Shown here one piece after another: positions 3,139 through 13,480 of a stretch of DNA of 29,671 nucleotides. The notes beneath the pieces were generated by a model that had not been told where the DNA came from, did no database searches, and saw nothing but the letters and a program-made list of their open reading frames with translations. The stretch is from a virus. The stretch covers positions 1-29,671 of the IMG/VR virus record IMGVR_UViG_3300042540_000639. The stretch is one strand, 5' to 3'. How positions within the stretch are numbered: position 1 is the stretch's first letter; each line of letters begins with the position of its first letter. The position numbers and the translations under genes are program-made.

Positions 3139-5277
3139 ATGGTTTCATATAGAGGTTATGGAGAACTATCTTACGGTAGTATAAATAATTCACTTAGTGA
3201 GTTTGGTATTTATAAGTTTCCACCTACATACACATTATCAATCAACGCCAAACCAATAATGTCTGATAATGGTGTTAATGTTAAATATAATAGGTATGAA
3301 CTTACAGTAAATTGGGTTTTACCATTTGAACTTTTAGGTGGCAGAATTAACCCTGGTCAAAACGATCCTACATCCGTTGATACAGCAGTTTTTCAAATTC
3401 AACAAATTTTAATGACACCTCGTTTAGAACTTGTGTGTAAAGCACAAGGTTTTGGTCTTTCTTTTACAAGAAATTCAGATGATGATGATAATCATGGCCC
3501 AACTCCTCTTGATTTCAAATGGAAGGTGTTAGCAACACAACGATGTGTTGAAATGTCTTGGACTGTAGCGTTTCATACATCTAATGGTATTTTTTATGAT
3601 CCTCAAAATCAATTAATAAAAAGAGGTTCAGTAATACAAGATTTTGTCTGGTCAAGGACGTATGATCTTGATGAGTTTGGTGCTGCAACAATTACCACAA
3701 CAGGATCTATTTCACAAATACAGGCTCAATGGGTTAATGCTAATACTGGTTTACCAATACCTATACCAGTTAATAGGCATGTTGATAACTGGAGATTCAT
3801 GGCTTATTTTCCAGTACCATTGTACTGCAAACGTATATCTCAAAAATTTCAATATGATCCAACAACAAAAGTGATGAATTTTACTCTTGTTGACAAAGAG
3901 TTACCTACAGAAAATGCTTATCCACCTTTAGTAGTTGATATTGATTTATCACATGAACTATCATCATCTTTAGTAGATGCAGGTAAATTCTCTGGCACTG
4001 GTTTTTTGACTTGGACTAATGTCTTCAGTGGAAGCATTACCCTTAAACCAGGAGTATCTCCTTTATACGCTTACTTCTTATTTCATTTCTATCTTCGTCA
4101 AAGAATGAACCGTGTTAATAGAGAAATCACGGTAGCTGGAGCAACTTTTGGTGAAGGTGTTGCTAAAGATGATACACAAGTACCAATTAAAACTGAAAAA
4201 GATCCTGGAACTAATGTAAATGAATCACAAGCTACTGAAAAAGTAAGAACATTACTTACTAGAGTTAGCTACAAAGAATCTTTATTCAGCAGAACACATA
4301 CATTTAAAGCTGAATACTGGGCATTATATAGCCGAGAAAATTTCATAGCTCAATCAGGTATTTTTTTACCTCTTTATAATTACGCACAAAGAGATGGTAA
4401 TGAAGTTACTTGGTATGGAGCAACTAACCAAGATGATGAACCTTGGCAAAAAGATTTTAATAGAAGTTCAAATAAATCCAGTAATAAATTAAGTGTTCAA
4501 TGGGATAGATATCAAATTTACAATGATCTTGCTGTAAAAAATAATAATTCACCTTATGGATATTTATTGTTTCAAGAAACTGGTGTAAATAGAGGCCCAT
4601 ATGGTAGTACAAAATTATTTATACCTAATGATGTAAATGCACAATCCGATGAAACCGAAATAGATATACTTGATCCATATGACTTAGATGCTTGGGATAT
4701 AGAAAGTAATATCTATTCTCAAGCTAATTACAACAACACAAAACAAGATACATATGCAGGAGCTAAAGCATACATTGATCCAGAAATATCATGGATTGAT
4801 TACAAAATAAACACAACTCTTGTTGAAGATCATAATACTACTCAAGTTGTTAGACAGTCTTATGACGCTAATGTAAAAACGGGGTTACAATCATTTAGAG
4901 ATAATAACGGTCAATACGAAGGAAAACCAAATAAGAATACTACAAAGTTTGTCCTTAACAATGCTAATACTTCTGGTGCAGATCAACCAACAGATGAAGT
5001 AGTATCTACTTTTAATGGTCAACCAAACTCTGTTGTGATTCTATCTGGTTATGCGATAAGAGCAGGTTTTCCTGTTCCTATTCCTTCAATCCTTAGCTAC
5101 CAAAATAAAGCAGTATATCGAACAGGACAGGCGATGTACTCCAACAGAATAATTAGTAAAGGTGAAATCCCTGTTTATCTTGCAACTTGGTCAATTCCAT
5201 ATTACATTGACCAAACTAAGCATCGGGATGTTTTTGCCGATCTAAAGATTAATGGCTACACAGGAGAATTAGGCTAA
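3139..5277 (+). CDS. Large virion structural protein
   Basis: A 712-residue protein rich in Asn, Tyr, Thr and short beta strands, with no signal peptide, membrane helix or catalytic motif that I recognise. The N-terminal 200 residues contain repeated aromatic strand patterns and an acidic DDDD patch near residues 115-118. Composition and position in the tail region suggest a virion component such as a baseplate, distal tail or fibre-base protein; this is inference. It is markedly AT-rich, with Asn mostly AAT and many A/T-ending codons, compared with its downstream neighbours, which may reflect separate ancestry. The start at 3139 follows a weak site. The stop overlaps the start of the next gene (TAATG). 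Confidence 0.5.
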   Translation: MVSYRGYGELSYGSINNSLSEFGIYKFPPTYTLSINAKPIMSDNGVNVKYNRYELTVNWVLPFELLGGRINPGQNDPTSVDTAVFQIQQILMTPRLELVCKAQGFGLSFTRNSDDDDNHGPTPLDFKWKVLATQRCVEMSWTVAFHTSNGIFYDPQNQLIKRGSVIQDFVWSRTYDLDEFGAATITTTGSISQIQAQWVNANTGLPIPIPVNRHVDNWRFMAYFPVPLYCKRISQKFQYDPTTKVMNFTLVDKELPTENAYPPLVVDIDLSHELSSSLVDAGKFSGTGFLTWTNVFSGSITLKPGVSPLYAYFLFHFYLRQRMNRVNREITVAGATFGEGVAKDDTQVPIKTEKDPGTNVNESQATEKVRTLLTRVSYKESLFSRTHTFKAEYWALYSRENFIAQSGIFLPLYNYAQRDGNEVTWYGATNQDDEPWQKDFNRSSNKSSNKLSVQWDRYQIYNDLAVKNNNSPYGYLLFQETGVNRGPYGSTKLFIPNDVNAQSDETEIDILDPYDLDAWDIESNIYSQANYNNTKQDTYAGAKAYIDPEISWIDYKINTTLVEDHNTTQVVRQSYDANVKTGLQSFRDNNGQYEGKPNKNTTKFVLNNANTSGADQPTDEVVSTFNGQPNSVVILSGYAIRAGFPVPIPSILSYQNKAVYRTGQAMYSNRIISKGEIPVYLATWSIPYYIDQTKHRDVFADLKINGYTGELG

Positions 5278-5582
5278 TGGCTATTGAGTTTCTTCTTCCC
5301 CCCAAAGATCAAACTACAGTCTCGGTTACCGTCGATGAGAACACCAAGATTGAAGTTGAAGTGATCGACATCGTAGAGGCTTTCCAGAGATCGCAGGAAG
5401 ACTGCGAGAAGCTAGGATCGACAGATTGGATTACTCACTTCGTCAGCAAGATGAAGAACAATCACAGTCTGAAGCTATCCAGGACTGCTGCTATGATGCT
5501 CGTCAATGTCGCAACTGGAGAGCTTGTAAAAATAAAAAAATCCTGCTTTCCAGAGGTAGAGCAATCAGGTTCTACAACCTAA
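5277..5582 (+). CDS. Tail assembly chaperone, short (G-like) product
   Basis: The zero-frame product has 101 residues and begins MAIEFLLPP. It is a small acidic/helical protein of the size expected for the short member of a G/GT-type tail assembly chaperone pair, which binds the tape measure during tail assembly. It has little recognisable sequence signature. Assignment rests on the overlapping -1 frame, the slippery A AAA AAA at 5534-5540 and the downstream stem-loop that contains this product's own stop codon (5580-5582). In most phages this pair lies upstream of the tape measure; here it lies downstream of the tape-measure candidate and just before the portal gene, which is unusual. The start overlaps the preceding stop. 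Confidence 0.6.
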   Translation: MAIEFLLPPKDQTTVSVTVDENTKIEVEVIDIVEAFQRSQEDCEKLGSTDWITHFVSKMKNNHSLKLSRTAAMMLVNVATGELVKIKKSCFPEVEQSGSTT

Positions 5583-5803
5583 CTCTACCTTTGGATGACA
5601 GAATCATCCGTTACTATGCAACCGTCATTCCTAACCTTGAGGCAGAAGAAGAACTCAAACAACGTGGTAGAGAAGGTCAGCTAACTCCTGACAAGTTTTA
5701 CTCTCTACTCATATTGTCTGGTGTTCCAGAAAAAGAGGCTGATACTGCTAGAGCAAGAATGGTAATGCAACAACTTGAGAGCAAAAGCCAATGGCAAAGG
5801 TAA
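5277..5803 (+). CDS. Tail assembly chaperone, -1 frameshift (GT-like) product
   Basis: If ribosomes slip back one base at A AAA AAA (5534-5540), the first 88 codons are joined to 87 codons in the -1 frame, giving a 175-residue protein ending at 5803. The -1 extension begins ILLSRGRAIRFYN and is rich in charged helical residues. It has no plausible start of its own at the right place, and the extension continues in open frame for 264 nt up to the portal gene, which it overlaps by 13 nt. G/GT frameshift fusions are established for lambda-like and many other tailed phages. That this pair serves the tail is inferred from that precedent. A phage protein of other function made by the same mechanism cannot be excluded. 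Confidence 0.65.
5534..5594 (+). promoter_or_regulatory. Programmed -1 ribosomal frameshift signal
   Basis: Slippery heptamer A AAA AAA occupies 5534-5540 in the correct zero-frame phase (ata aaa aaa tcc). A 9-nt spacer (5541-5549) follows. Then comes a 12-bp stem: CCAGAGGTAGAG (5550-5561) pairs with CTCTACCTTTGG (5583-5594) with one G-U wobble. The 21-nt loop contains a nested 5-bp stem, AGGTT (5568-5572) with AACCT (5576-5580). The zero-frame stop TAA lies inside the loop. All parts match the textbook arrangement for -1 frameshifting. Confidence 0.8.
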
Positions 5804-7089: not shown

Positions 7090-9006
7090 ATGTTTAAGCT
7101 AGAGATTGGTTCTGTATCCATCAAGTGTATTGATCCTATTGCTGTTAAACAAGCAATGGAGAGCATTGGCGTAGACAGTTCCGTTATCTCTAAATGCAAC
7201 TCAGTAGAACTAAAGCATGGGCCTCGACCAGGGACAGGTCATTTCCTCATGCTGCAATCTGATTTTGATGCTTTAGCAGCAGAGATTGCTACATTTACCA
7301 GTAGTGCTTTCTTTCCTAATCTAACGATTAAAGCAGTTGATAACTTTAATAATGGTGCTGCCTATAGTTTTGGTAATTGGACTTTAGCCACTGCTAACAC
7401 CATTTATGGTCATCCAAGCAATCCTGATGCTATTGTTTATGTTACTGCTGAAGATGTTCGTCATTGGTTAGCCAGAACATACACACCAGCAAAGACATAT
7501 AATAAGATTCGTCATACTGAAAAAAACGTAGGTGTACCAGCAGGTACAAACAGATATTATAGCGATACCCTAAACGGAAGTAATCTTTGGACAATTAATG
7601 ATATGCTTGATGATATGGTGACAGGATATTCTGCTCCTATCACTTGGACATCATCATCGTTATTAGCCGACTATTACTTTTTCAATGTCATATCTGGTGA
7701 TATGACAATTCTTGATTGGTATTCCAGAGTAGCACAAACATTACGTTGTTATTATTACGTCGATACTGCCGGTCAGGTTGTATTTGATGACGCTATGTTT
7801 GATGAAGCAGATATTAGTAGTGCCCCTACTATTTATCATATGAAAAATCTAATGATTAACCCACGCAATACTGGGTCACCATTAGAGTCACAAAAATGGA
7901 CATTAGTATTTGTTACTGCTGAAAGCCTGGTAGGCAAGCATTACAACAATGAATCAGATATTATTGATCCTACAAATCAAAATAAATATCCAGTAAACAA
8001 TTGGCAGACAGAAATAGTACCATTTACTCAAGGTGCGCAGCAAGCTAATCTTCCTCATCACTCTGCTACTACAATACCACCAACACCCCCAAGTGGTTCC
8101 CCTACTACTTTGTTCTTACCAAGTTCAGCATATTGGTCTAACCAAGTCAGTCAAATAGCTCAACGAGTTAGAACGAATATTCATCCAGAATACCGATATG
8201 TAAATATACGAGGTTACTTTGCTTATACACCTCGGTTCCAAGGTGATGTGATTGTTTATTCCAATTATGGTGATGGGTTAGCAACTAGCATCTATGGTGT
8301 GAAAGAACATGAACTTGATTACCTGACTCCAGAGTTTAAGCACTATGAGAAAGAACTAATCAGAGAATACTGGAAGTTCATTCTTAAATCACCTTTCATT
8401 TATCCAGAAGGTTATTCCTATGGATATGCTACAGCAGACATTTACTATCCAATTCTTGATGTACCAAGAAGAACATCTGTTACTATTTTTGATTTAACTA
8501 AATCATTACGAGGAATTACAGTTGGCTCTAAAGGTACTTGTCATCAGATAGGTGCTTACTATTATGCTAATTGCTGTACTGAAGCAGTTAGTAGTTCGTC
8601 TTCGATTAGCCAACCTTCTAGCTCCAGTTCATCTAGTTCTAGCTCTTCCAGTTCCAGCAGTTCGTCTAGTTCGTCTAGCTCATCCAGTTCTAGTTCTTCA
8701 AGTTCTAGTTCTAGCAGTTCTAGTTCGTCAGCATCATCCGGTTCTAGTGCCTCCAGTGGTTCTGAAGGTTCTAGTGGATCTGGATCAGGTAGTGGGTCTG
8801 GATCGGGCAGCGGTTCTGGTTCTGACGGTGGTGGTGGTACTTGCGAAGGATTCTGTTCTTATACTTGGAATGGGTCATCGTGGGATTTAGTACAAAACTT
8901 CTGTGAAGGTACTCACCCACAATGCCTATGTAGTTATCCTTCCGGCCCTGGTATATTCCCAGGAGAAGGTCGAATTACAATTTGTGTTGGTGGTGGAGCG
9001 ATATAG
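7090..9006 (+). CDS. Virion stalk protein with poly-Ser linker and Cys-rich tip
   Basis: The 638-residue protein starts one base after the portal stop. Residues 1 to about 495 form a large mixed domain rich in Tyr, Asn and Asp, consistent with a structural adsorption or baseplate protein. From about residue 500 to 560 there is an almost pure Ser run, then a Gly-Ser repeat and an acidic/Gly hinge. A compact tip of about 50 residues with seven Cys follows (CEGFCSYTWNGSSWDL and later CEG, CLC, C). The Ser codons are mixed (agt, agc, tct, tcc, tca, tcg), so the protein sequence is selected and not a DNA repeat. I infer a surface-exposed rod with a disulfide- or metal-stabilised knob. Two glycosyltransferase genes lie downstream. 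No enzymatic motif is seen. Confidence 0.55.
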   Translation: MFKLEIGSVSIKCIDPIAVKQAMESIGVDSSVISKCNSVELKHGPRPGTGHFLMLQSDFDALAAEIATFTSSAFFPNLTIKAVDNFNNGAAYSFGNWTLATANTIYGHPSNPDAIVYVTAEDVRHWLARTYTPAKTYNKIRHTEKNVGVPAGTNRYYSDTLNGSNLWTINDMLDDMVTGYSAPITWTSSSLLADYYFFNVISGDMTILDWYSRVAQTLRCYYYVDTAGQVVFDDAMFDEADISSAPTIYHMKNLMINPRNTGSPLESQKWTLVFVTAESLVGKHYNNESDIIDPTNQNKYPVNNWQTEIVPFTQGAQQANLPHHSATTIPPTPPSGSPTTLFLPSSAYWSNQVSQIAQRVRTNIHPEYRYVNIRGYFAYTPRFQGDVIVYSNYGDGLATSIYGVKEHELDYLTPEFKHYEKELIREYWKFILKSPFIYPEGYSYGYATADIYYPILDVPRRTSVTIFDLTKSLRGITVGSKGTCHQIGAYYYANCCTEAVSSSSSISQPSSSSSSSSSSSSSSSSSSSSSSSSSSSSSSSSSSSSSSASSGSSASSGSEGSSGSGSGSGSGSGSGSGSDGGGGTCEGFCSYTWNGSSWDLVQNFCEGTHPQCLCSYPSGPGIFPGEGRITICVGGGAI

Positions 9007-9013
9007 GTAGAAT

Positions 9014-9538
9014 ATGTATACAGATTGCAAATACGAACAATGTGAAGGTGACGTATCTTACTGTAAAATTGCTTACGAACTTTCTGCAATCAAATCAGTA
9101 ACATCCAAAGAAGCATGTGAGCATTGCAGTAAAATCCCTAATTCCAGAACACATAACTCGGTAACTGCTTCTTTAGCATTACAAGCAGTACGAACTCACA
9201 AACCAGAAATGGTTAAAGAGTACATCTATCAAATCAAACATCTTCTTACTACTGAAGAACCCGATCAAAAAGTAGTTGGTGAAGGCCCAGGTACAGAACT
9301 TACTAAACTTCTTTCTTGGTTTGCCAAAGACACTCCAGGATGTAAGTGCAAAGACCATGCGAATCTTATGAACGTATGGGGTGTGGATGGTTGTAGAAAT
9401 AATATGGAAACCATATTACAATGGCTTGAAACAGCAGCAAAAGATCGTGGAATACCTTTCATCAAACCTCTTGCTAAAAGTCTCGTCAATCTCGCTATCA
9501 AACGAGCAGAGTCATGTACACCGAAAGATGCTTCATAA
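9014..9538 (+). CDS. Hypothetical Cys-rich protein
   Basis: The protein has 174 residues and I do not recognise its function. The N-terminal 40 residues carry five Cys in C-x4-C-x6-C and C-x2-C arrangements (residues 5, 10, 17, 36, 39), suggesting a metal site. Near residues 110-130 there is a GCKCKDHANLMNVWGVDGC motif, and downstream the protein is helical and basic. The G-C-x-C-x6-M-x-x-W-G-x-x-x-C pattern is one I associate with planctomycete phage/prophage proteins near glycosyltransferases, recalled and not searched. The last 25 nt overlap the next gene, so coupling to the glycosyltransferases is likely. A role in glycan or virion decoration is only inferred. Confidence 0.5.
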   Translation: MYTDCKYEQCEGDVSYCKIAYELSAIKSVTSKEACEHCSKIPNSRTHNSVTASLALQAVRTHKPEMVKEYIYQIKHLLTTEEPDQKVVGEGPGTELTKLLSWFAKDTPGCKCKDHANLMNVWGVDGCRNNMETILQWLETAAKDRGIPFIKPLAKSLVNLAIKRAESCTPKDAS

Positions 9539-10212
9539 TCAATTTAGATGTCCGTAGGGATCGATTACAGCAGTTTTATGATCGATTACCCAAGAACTTT
9601 CCTTGGGGCATTCCAGAGCGTTGGCAAGCGATTCATGGGGATTCAGTAAAGCATCCTGATTGGTGGACAGCAGGTAACGGTGCGTGGGGATGCTACAAGT
9701 CTCATCTTAATATCCTTGAATACTGCCTGAATAATCGAATTGAGTCATATACTGTCTTTGAAGATGACGCATTCTTTCGAGAAGATTTCAACACCAGTAT
9801 GCTCACTTTCTATGAGCATCTTCCAGAATGGGAGATGGTCTATCTTGGTGGACAACTCTTGCATGTTGAAGGTAATCCTCCTGAAGAAGTTAATCCTTTT
9901 GTATATATTCCCTATAACGTAAACAGAACACACGCCTTCATGGTGAATACTCGCAAAGGAATGGAGATTCTCTATAAATTCCTAAATGCAACACCCTTTG
10001 AGACTCACTACCATATCGACCATCATTTAGGATTGCTACACGAACGTAAGAAGCTAAAACTGTTCTGCCCTCATAAGTGGCTTGTAGGTCAATGTGAATC
10101 CACTAGCAACATCAGTGGTCAGCAAACAGGATCAACCTTCTTCGATGATCCTCATCAATGCATCAAATATAAAAAAGATCCTTTTGCAGGTTTAGGAACA
10201 GCAAAGTTATGA
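9514..10212 (+). CDS. GT25-like glycosyltransferase
   Basis: The 232-residue protein begins with a FIINLDVRRDRLQQF motif (residues 7-21), characteristic of family 25 glycosyltransferases (LPS/collagen-type galactosyltransferases). This is followed by WQAIHGD, GAWGCYKSHLNILEYC (residues 52-68) and an acidic VFEDDAFF segment near residue 82 that supplies the metal-binding acidic motif. Such enzymes transfer a sugar from a nucleotide donor to protein or glycan acceptors. It has no signal peptide, so it acts in the cytoplasm. It overlaps the Cys-rich gene upstream by 25 nt and the next glycosyltransferase by 4 nt, forming one transcription unit with the Ser-rich stalk gene. Its acceptor is unknown; virion protein glycosylation is my inference. 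Confidence 0.8.
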   Translation: MYTERCFIINLDVRRDRLQQFYDRLPKNFPWGIPERWQAIHGDSVKHPDWWTAGNGAWGCYKSHLNILEYCLNNRIESYTVFEDDAFFREDFNTSMLTFYEHLPEWEMVYLGGQLLHVEGNPPEEVNPFVYIPYNVNRTHAFMVNTRKGMEILYKFLNATPFETHYHIDHHLGLLHERKKLKLFCPHKWLVGQCESTSNISGQQTGSTFFDDPHQCIKYKKDPFAGLGTAKL

Positions 10213-11555
10213 TTAGACTGTATATAAATCTTTTTAATTGTGTTGAATCTCAACGAGCTAAAGAATTCGATTATGTTCTAAAAAAAAATTTAGAAAATAA
10301 ATGGATCGATGAGGTTGTGATTTTTATCAGTAAACTTGATGTTTTTATATTACCTGAATCGTCAAAGATAAAAACAGTAATAACTGATAATCTATATCGA
10401 CCTACTTATAGTGATTTTGTAGATGAAGCTAACAAAAGAATTACTTGTAAAAATGATATAACAATTATCGCAAATAGTGATTGTTATTTTGACGATTCAA
10501 TTCAAGAACTATTAAAGTATGATCTTCGATACCATTGCGTAGCCTTATCCAGGTGGGAAGAAAAACTTGATGGATATATTAATTTAGAATGCCCTGTTAA
10601 TTCTCAAGATGCATGGATGTTTCAAGGTAGAATTAGGCCAATATCAAATTGTGATTATTCATTAGGTATCTATGGTTGTGACAATCGATTTGCATGGCAA
10701 TGCACTAGAGCAGGATACCTAAATATCAATCCATGTCACACTATCATAATGAGACATTATCATTTTTCTAGTTATAGAAATTCTGGAATAACCATAAATG
10801 GCCCTAAAGAAACGGTAATGCAAGTTCCAATAGATACTTGCAATCTCCCACCTAAAAATTCACTAACAACAGGTATTTTTAGCTATAGTTTGTTTGGTTC
10901 TGAAAACAGGTATTTAGCTGGAGCTAAAATGAATGCTGCTTTAGTTAAATACGTATACCCAGGTTTTTGGTGTAGATATTATGTTGATTCTTCAATATCA
11001 AAAGAACTGAAACAAGAATTGTTTGATATGGGGGTTGAGATTGTAGAAAAGAAACCTGCTATGAATCTTGCAGGTATGTTTTGGAGATTTGAGGCATTAG
11101 ATTTTGCTGGAGTTGATATGGTGGGTGTACGTGATATCGACTCAAGATTATCTATAAGAGACAGAGAAGTAACTATGGAATGGTTACAATCAAATGCCAA
11201 CTATCATACATTTAGAGATCATCCATACCATCAAACGCATATTAATGGCGGTTTCTTTTCTGCTAAGAAACCCATATCAAACATATCAGAATTGATATCT
11301 AAATATCAACACAATGGCTATTATGGTCAAGATGAGAATTTCTTAAGAGACATCATCTGGCCTGAAATTAAAGATGAATTGATGATTCATTCAACATTTA
11401 ATACAGGCCCAGAAGGTGCTTACAAAGGAAATTATTTAAATCCTTCATTTATGCAGTATAGGTTTTGTGTCGAGAGAGTGTATCACGATGAGCATGTAGG
11501 GCATACAGATCATTCTGTGTTTGGTTATCAACCATGCAATTCAACCTACAGTTAA
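10209..11555 (+). CDS. Two-domain glycosyltransferase
   Basis: The 448-residue protein looks like two glycosyltransferase domains in tandem. Residues 1 to about 210 have alternating strands and helices with an IIANSDCYFDDSI segment near residue 93 that resembles the acidic metal-binding motif of GT-A enzymes. Residues from about 222 onward start a second Rossmann-like unit (GIFSYSLFGSENRY), with GMFWRFEAL and a VGVRDIDSRLS DxD-type motif near residue 305, then HINGGFF and GYYGQDENFL, typical of GT8-like enzymes. The gene is AT-rich compared with its neighbours and contains an A9 run. It overlaps the GT25-like gene by ATGA and converges with the helicase with no gap. The substrates are not predictable from sequence. 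Confidence 0.65.
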   Translation: MIRLYINLFNCVESQRAKEFDYVLKKNLENKWIDEVVIFISKLDVFILPESSKIKTVITDNLYRPTYSDFVDEANKRITCKNDITIIANSDCYFDDSIQELLKYDLRYHCVALSRWEEKLDGYINLECPVNSQDAWMFQGRIRPISNCDYSLGIYGCDNRFAWQCTRAGYLNINPCHTIIMRHYHFSSYRNSGITINGPKETVMQVPIDTCNLPPKNSLTTGIFSYSLFGSENRYLAGAKMNAALVKYVYPGFWCRYYVDSSISKELKQELFDMGVEIVEKKPAMNLAGMFWRFEALDFAGVDMVGVRDIDSRLSIRDREVTMEWLQSNANYHTFRDHPYHQTHINGGFFSAKKPISNISELISKYQHNGYYGQDENFLRDIIWPEIKDELMIHSTFNTGPEGAYKGNYLNPSFMQYRFCVERVYHDEHVGHTDHSVFGYQPCNSTYS

Positions 11556-13258: not shown

Positions 13259-13480
13259 ATGCTAGTGCTGAGTCGAATGAAGGGCGAAGTAATCTGTATC
13301 GGGAATGACATCGAAATCGTGGTGGTTTCAACCAGTACAGGTCGGTGTAAGCTAGGTATAGTAGCACCGGAGAATACAAAAATCCTACGAAAGGAACTTA
13401 TCAGTGGGAGGCAAGCCAACACACACCCAACCAATCGATCTGGTAAAGAATCGGATCATCCAATCGATCCGCAGGACTAA
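13259..13480 (+). CDS. csrA: CsrA-family RNA-binding regulator
   Basis: The 73-residue protein aligns along its first 48 residues with CsrA/RsmA. It has the MLVLSR start with Leu4 and Arg6, a KGE turn, the GIVAP motif near residues 35-40 and the critical Arg of the ILRKEL strand (equivalent to R44 of E. coli CsrA). The C-terminal 22 residues are polar and probably disordered, longer than in typical 60-residue CsrA. CsrA dimers bind GGA motifs in mRNA leaders and alter translation or stability. A strong GGAGG site precedes the ATG. It is the first gene of the rightward replication block, a natural place for a master regulator, although its RNA targets are unknown. It could act on phage or host mRNAs. 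Confidence 0.85.
   Translation: MLVLSRMKGEVICIGNDIEIVVVSTSTGRCKLGIVAPENTKILRKELISGRQANTHPTNRSGKESDHPIDPQD

What the first reader, a model, noticed from the sequence alone, without database searches (positions are those of the whole stretch)
7090..11555. Ser-rich virion stalk followed by two glycosyltransferases: a possible glycosylated appendage
A protein with a Ser run of about 45-50 residues, a Gly-Ser hinge and a seven-Cys tip lies directly upstream of a GT25-like enzyme and a two-domain glycosyltransferase, with one Cys-rich gene between. Bacterial serine-rich repeat adhesins are typically encoded beside their glycosyltransferases. I infer an O-glycosylated phage stalk, which could mask or mediate host binding. 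Ser codons are mixed, showing selection for the protein run.
Basis: inference. Interest (0 to 1): 0.75.

Follow-up and report, generated by a model that had tools for sequence, protein, structure and literature searches.

The report
Phage serine stalk with glycosyltransferase cassette
Viruses of Planctomycetota bacteria carry, right after their tail genes, a serine-rich stalk protein with a cysteine-rich tip, a conserved cysteine-rich partner and a swappable set of sugar-attaching enzymes, which suggests that these phages coat a tail appendage with sugars much as some bacteria do with their serine-rich adhesins.

Summary
The arrangement is not local. In Planctomycetota phages and prophages the order tail genes / Ser-rich Cys-tipped protein / MN / GT25 (or another GT) / variable GT, methyltransferase, sulfotransferase and radical-SAM genes recurs in many lineages. 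New here: MN has a four-Cys N-domain that tracks Ser-rich stalks (11/11 versus 3/36 clusters, p=2e-8) and a C-domain fused elsewhere to GTs of several families. I propose that MN is an adaptor bringing GTs to the stalk, that GT25 probably primes, and that swappable genes finish the glycan. Sister phage L002 has a 96-99% identical backbone, 93% GT25, 65-72% stalk and MN, and a replaced finishing cassette. Virion location and glycosylation remain inferred. It works like the SRRP/accessory-Sec system but is not a member.

The parts
7090..9006 (+). Stalk protein, 638 aa: N-terminal structural part, Ser tract, Gly-Ser hinge, Cys tip
   Evidence: ORF; homologues with the same layout in L002, L004-L007
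7090..8586 (+). N-terminal ~499 aa, presumed tail-tip structural part (no profile match; AF2 model poor)
   Evidence: 68% identity to L002, 48% to L004; in L008 it is a separate 470-aa gene and the Ser/Cys part stands alone; AF2 pLDDT 37
8587..8763 (+). Ser tract, 51 Ser of 59 residues; pure run of 38 at 8617-8730
8764..8841 (+). Gly-Ser rich hinge
   Evidence: sequence
8842..9003 (+). Cys-rich tip, six Cys, motif C-x3-C-x-Y-x-W-N-G-S-S-W ... C ... C-x-C ... PG-x-F/I-x-GE ... C
   Evidence: recurs with variation in stalks of other lineages, in some with the two halves in reverse order
9014..9538 (+). MN protein, 174 aa, proposed adaptor: N-domain with C5, C17, C35, C38; C-domain with GPGTEL and MNxWG motifs and C110, C112, C127
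   Evidence: alignment A12; AF2 mean pLDDT 89; N-domain tracks Ser-rich stalks; C-domain fused to GTs in other phages
9514..10212 (+). GT25 glycosyltransferase, 232 aa; proposed first (priming) enzyme
   Evidence: PF01755 E=2.3e-11; PDB sequence match to procollagen galactosyltransferase 1, E=5e-5; 93% DNA identity to L002
10209..11555 (+). 448-aa two-part protein, probable glycosyltransferase; the swappable finishing gene of this phage
   Evidence: halves related to phage proteins in sugar-gene surroundings; replaced in L002 by three other genes and in L004 by a GT-methyltransferase fusion

Best explanation
This is a phage-encoded appendage glycosylation module. The stalk protein is carried on or near the tail tip; its Ser tract is a flexible, heavily O-glycosylated rod that holds out a disulfide- or metal-stabilised Cys tip. 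During late expression, in the host cytoplasm and before virion assembly, the MN protein binds the nascent stalk through its four-Cys N-domain and recruits the glycosyltransferase through its C-domain. GT25 attaches or starts the glycan. The 448-aa protein here, or other GT, methyl-, sulfo- or radical-SAM enzymes in relatives, extend and cap it. The end product differs between close relatives, so the module probably tunes adsorption or escape from host defences. Shown: gene order, its recurrence, the MN-stalk correlation, the MN-GT fusions and the cassette swap. Inferred: virion location, glycosylation of Ser, the adaptor role, the order of steps, and the biological benefit.
For: (1) Stalk-first test: 25 of 25 prophage-type stalks with at least 1.1 kb of sequence beyond them are followed by MN and GT25. 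(2) GT25-first test: a Ser-rich ORF lies within 4 kb upstream in 20 of 31 GT25 clusters (70% identity), against 0 of 21 at 1-5 kb downstream and 0 of 9 beside remote GT25s. (3) MN-first test in genomes: all 21 full-length MN genes have a Ser-rich ORF just upstream; viral plus genomic data, four-Cys domain present: Ser-rich neighbour 11/11 clusters; absent: 3/36; Fisher p=2e-8. (4) The MN C-domain is fused in single ORFs to GT25, GT25+sulfotransferase, GT2, GT4, a putative mannosyltransferase (with FkbM methyltransferase), and GT-like proteins. (5) Where GT25 is missing, other GT-like genes take its place (L017, L018, L008). (6) Sister phage L002: backbone 96-99% DNA identity, GT25 93%, stalk and MN 65-72%, cassette replaced. 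(7) Tape measure genes lie a few genes upstream of the stalk in L168 and L018. (8) Closely packed or overlapping genes on one strand, no excess of promoter- or terminator-like sites, no membrane segments in stalk, MN, GT25 or 448-aa protein.
Against: No experiment. The N-terminal part of the stalk has no recognisable structural homologue and its model is poor, so virion location rests on gene order. The 448-aa protein has no profile match. Eleven of 31 GT25 clusters lack a nearby Ser-rich ORF; some are decayed, displaced or cut, but several distant ones really lack it. MN proteins with only the C-domain show no clear enrichment of GTs among separate neighbouring genes. MN has no match among solved structures. 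Most tests are on related prophages, so independent events are fewer than loci.
Confidence: 0.68

Rival explanations
1. The glycosyltransferases modify the host surface (LPS or other glycans) for superinfection exclusion or serotype change; the Ser tract is only a flexible linker.
For: GT25 is named for LPS biosynthesis enzymes; many relatives are prophages; finishing genes resemble surface-glycan enzymes.
Against: Genes are packed behind the stalk in the tail region; no GtrA flippase in seven records; no membrane segments; the four-Cys MN domain tracks the Ser-rich stalk; the prophage-type stalks do not occur without the GT genes.
Confidence: 0.13
2. The enzymes glycosylate another virion protein (tube, capsid), as in mycobacteriophages, and the stalk is a bystander.
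For: Mycobacteriophage GTs modify capsid and tail tube subunits (Freeman 2023, as cited in PMC11600133 and PMC12619734).
Against: The Ser-rich part is the constant neighbour across otherwise different tail modules and always precedes full-length MN.
Confidence: 0.11
3. DNA hypermodification: the glycosyltransferases glucosylate phage DNA.
For: Weak hits of GT25 to PHROG families named glucosyltransferase.
Against: No thymidylate-synthase-type enzyme in seven records, though records may be fragments; linkage to a tail gene; linked methyl- and sulfotransferases.
Confidence: 0.03
4. Co-occurrence by shared ancestry only: a conserved gene block in related prophages with no functional link.
For: Many loci are close relatives of Rhodopirellula-type prophages.
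Against: Stalk N-termini look unrelated between lineages and the first GTs differ, yet the order stays; fusions join MN and GT domains.
Confidence: 0.05

Closest known systems
Serine-rich repeat glycoproteins (SRRPs) with GtfA/GtfB and accessory Sec, Gram-positive bacteria (PMC6973325)
   Same: Long Ser-rich tract, neighbouring glycosyltransferases, a constant first step plus a variable number of later GTs, and a partner (GtfB) that handles the acceptor
   Different: Phage tail region, no SecA found in seven records, first enzyme GT25 or another GT with no GtfA/GtfB profile match, different partner (MN), Ser tract ends in a Cys tip instead of a cell-wall anchor
Mycobacteriophage virion glycosylation (Freeman et al. 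2023, cited in PMC11600133, PMC12619734)
   Same: Phage-encoded GTs (with an O-methyltransferase in cluster O phages) that modify structural proteins
   Different: Targets there are capsid and tail tube; no Ser-rich stalk, Cys tip or MN protein is mentioned in the passages I could read
GT25 family (LPS enzymes, procollagen galactosyltransferase)
   Same: Profile match PF01755; PDB match to procollagen galactosyltransferase 1, an enzyme that acts on protein
   Different: The close relatives are almost all in Planctomycetota phages and prophages, often fused to a sulfotransferase
O-antigen conversion (gtr) cassettes of temperate phages
   Same: Phage GTs swapped between relatives
   Different: Gtr systems use a membrane flippase and membrane GTs (own knowledge); none seen here

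Membership tests
GT25 | Match to PF01755 above curated cut-off | tested here: met
   44.4 bits versus 24
GT25 | Glycosyltransferase activity with a nucleotide sugar | not testable with these tools
   needs purified enzyme
SRRP / accessory Sec system | Ser-rich region next to GT genes | tested here: met
SRRP / accessory Sec system | SecA2/SecY2 in or near the cluster | tested here: not met
   No SecA DEAD domain in window or six relatives, controls ring; SecY2 not searched
SRRP / accessory Sec system | GtfA/GtfB priming pair | tested here: inconclusive
   Pfam scan of the window's four genes finds only GT25; remote similarity not excluded
SRRP / accessory Sec system | O-glycosylation of Ser | not testable with these tools
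   needs mass spectrometry
Phage virion glycosylation | GT genes linked to virion structural genes | tested here: met
   directly after the tail/portal region in the window; tape measure upstream in L168, L018
Phage virion glycosylation | Glycan on a virion protein | not testable with these tools
   needs virions
gtr O-antigen conversion | GtrA flippase and membrane GT | tested here: not met
Phage DNA glucosylation | Base hydroxymethylating enzyme of the thymidylate synthase family | tested here: not met
   none in seven records, which may be incomplete

The most novel reading that the evidence does not exclude
A phage system, not described in the literature I could search, in which a dedicated two-domain adaptor (four-Cys stalk-binding domain plus GT-binding MNxWG domain) directs interchangeable glycosyltransferases onto a Ser-rich, Cys-tipped tail stalk, making the virion glycan of Planctomycetota phages a rapidly swapped trait.
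Probability: 0.45. Interest if true: 0.82.

Novelty: new variant of a known kind. Interest (0 to 1): 0.7.

Why it matters
It would show that phages built their own counterpart of bacterial serine-rich glycoprotein adhesins, with a new adaptor family. It would explain a class of unannotated genes in Planctomycetota phages and give cultured lysogens (Rhodopirellula rubra with four copies, Stieleria tagensis, Aporhodopirellula aestuarii, Rubripirellula obstinata, Roseiconus nitratireducens) in which phage glycosylation, adsorption and glycan swapping can be tested directly.

Tried and rejected
Chance run of Ser: rejected (conserved length and layout in homologues). Mixed Ser codons as proof of selection: weakened, because AGY/TCN alternate in a hexamer-like way in the window and L004. 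AlphaFold of the stalk N-terminus: pLDDT 37, unusable. PDB fold search with the good MN model: no match; the viral library gave one uncharacterised phage protein at E=1e-4. Search for close relatives of the 448-aa protein in viral contigs: none. The 'SPINDLY' annotation of an Acinetobacter relative: rejected as evidence, since its Pfam matches are TPR repeats outside the matching half and the record's neighbours look like bacterial chromosome genes. General GT enrichment around MN proteins lacking the N-domain: not seen. INPHARED phages: no stalk or portal homologue. Phylum-wide sample of 392 genomes: only 2 with MN, whereas 30 of 297 in the order of Rhodopirellula have it, so the family is concentrated there. 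First genome scan with the small MN alignment A1 found nothing.

Full report
What is there. The stalk gene (7090-9006) starts on the base after the gene before it, a Mu-type portal-like protein (PF06074), and lies downstream of a weakly tape-measure-like gene and other tail-region genes. It has a ~499-aa N-terminal part without any family match, a Ser tract (51 Ser of 59, longest run 38), a Gly-Ser hinge and a six-Cys tip. MN (9014-9538), GT25 (9514-10212) and a 448-aa gene (10209-11555) follow with a gap of 7 bp and overlaps of 25 and 4 bp.

Relatives of the same phage. L002 is a sister contig. DNA identity is 98.8% in the portal, 95.7-97.9% downstream, 93% in GT25, but only 65-72% in stalk and MN, and the 448-aa gene is replaced by three genes: one without a family match, a methyltransferase and a radical-SAM protein. 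In L004-L007 (portal 70% identical) the same slot holds a fusion of a DXD-type glycosyltransferase and a methyltransferase. In L008 the Ser/Cys part is a separate gene and no GT25 was recognised; instead there are GT-like genes and an FkbM methyltransferase. So GT25 is nearly constant among close relatives, while stalk, MN and finishing enzymes vary.

How general. MN-based and GT25-based scans reached 75 and 79 viral loci and 49 genome loci; the genomes with a close GT25 are almost all Planctomycetota. The stalk's N-terminal part differs between lineages, but a Ser-rich region and a Cys tip recur. Three ways of counting agree. From the stalk: 25 of 25 with room downstream have MN and GT25. From GT25: 20 of 31 clusters have a Ser-rich ORF upstream, 0 of 21 downstream, 0 of 9 for remote GT25. 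From MN in genomes: 21 of 21 full-length MN genes follow a Ser-rich ORF, most with the W/C tip. Prophage stalks keep both ends but differ in length from 547 to 1062 aa, as expected of a repeat rod.

The constant partner. MN has two domains. The N-domain has four conserved Cys. The C-domain carries GPGTEL and MNxWG motifs and three Cys; the AlphaFold model is confident (pLDDT 89) and has no match in the PDB. Clusters with the N-domain always have a Ser-rich upstream neighbour (11/11 at 70% identity), those without it rarely do (3/36), Fisher p=2e-8. The C-domain alone occurs in many other phages, and in single ORFs it is fused to GT25 (L078), GT25 plus sulfotransferase (L115), GT2 (L075), GT4 (L084), a putative mannosyltransferase with FkbM methyltransferase (L070; L079 cut by the contig end), and GT-like proteins (L056, L017). 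This is what a bridge between stalk and enzyme would look like. It is inference, and separate neighbouring genes of C-domain-only proteins show no clear GT excess.

Where it acts. Tape measure genes sit a few genes upstream in L168 and L018. The genes are on one strand, closely packed, promoter- and terminator-like sites do not exceed shuffled expectation, and no protein of the set has a membrane segment by a simple hydropathy scan. No GtrA flippase, SecA or thymidylate-synthase-type enzyme is found in seven records, which argues against host-surface conversion, accessory Sec export and DNA glucosylation, with the caveat that records may be fragments.

The 448-aa protein. No profile match. Its N-half is 31% identical to a protein beside a nucleotide-sugar epimerase in Synechococcus phage S-SKS1, and in jumbo phage LR756501 the relative of this half lies next to a GT25 relative. 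Its C-half resembles a protein inside a glycosyltransferase cluster of S-SRM01, with a conserved RDxDS motif. Probable GT, not proven.

Compared with the known. It works like bacterial SRRP glycosylation (priming pair, acceptor-binding partner, variable later GTs; PMC6973325) but is not a member: no SecA, a different first enzyme, a different partner. It is closest in setting to mycobacteriophage virion glycosylation, where capsid and tube are modified. Literature searches found no description of this arrangement, within an open-access library only. I rate it a new variant of a known kind.

Noticed in passing
window 5277-5803; L004 8018-8535; L008 9487-10012: Two overlapping ORFs joined by a conserved -1 slippery heptamer (A AAA AAA in window and L008, A AAA AAC in L004) that would fuse the 101-aa protein to a second conserved part ending at the portal gene: looks like a tail assembly chaperone made by programmed frameshifting (as lambda G/GT), read.
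   Followed up: partly
window 13259-13480: CsrA-like 73-aa protein in the phage (TIGR00202 54.9 bits, below the 70.1 cut-off).
   Followed up: no
window 3139-5277: 712-aa tail-region protein also diverges strongly from sister phage L002 (70.5% DNA) while the genes after it are 99% identical: a second candidate host-contact protein.
   Followed up: no
L015 6410-7888, L115 7626-9326: GT25 fused to a sulfotransferase domain in prophage relatives, suggesting sulfated glycans.
   Followed up: partly
L261, L263, L264, L265 (Rhodopirellula rubra): Four copies of the module in one cultured genome.
   Followed up: partly
L018 5546-6007 and L017 5450-5998 versus window 8842-9003: The two halves of the Cys tip (W-x-G-x-W part and PG-x-F-x-G part) occur in reverse order, like a circular permutation.
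   Followed up: no
L258 (CAKLQH020000005.1): A record named Acinetobacter phage MD-2021a carries recN, yqgE, rlmB and coaE here and looks like bacterial chromosome.
   Followed up: no
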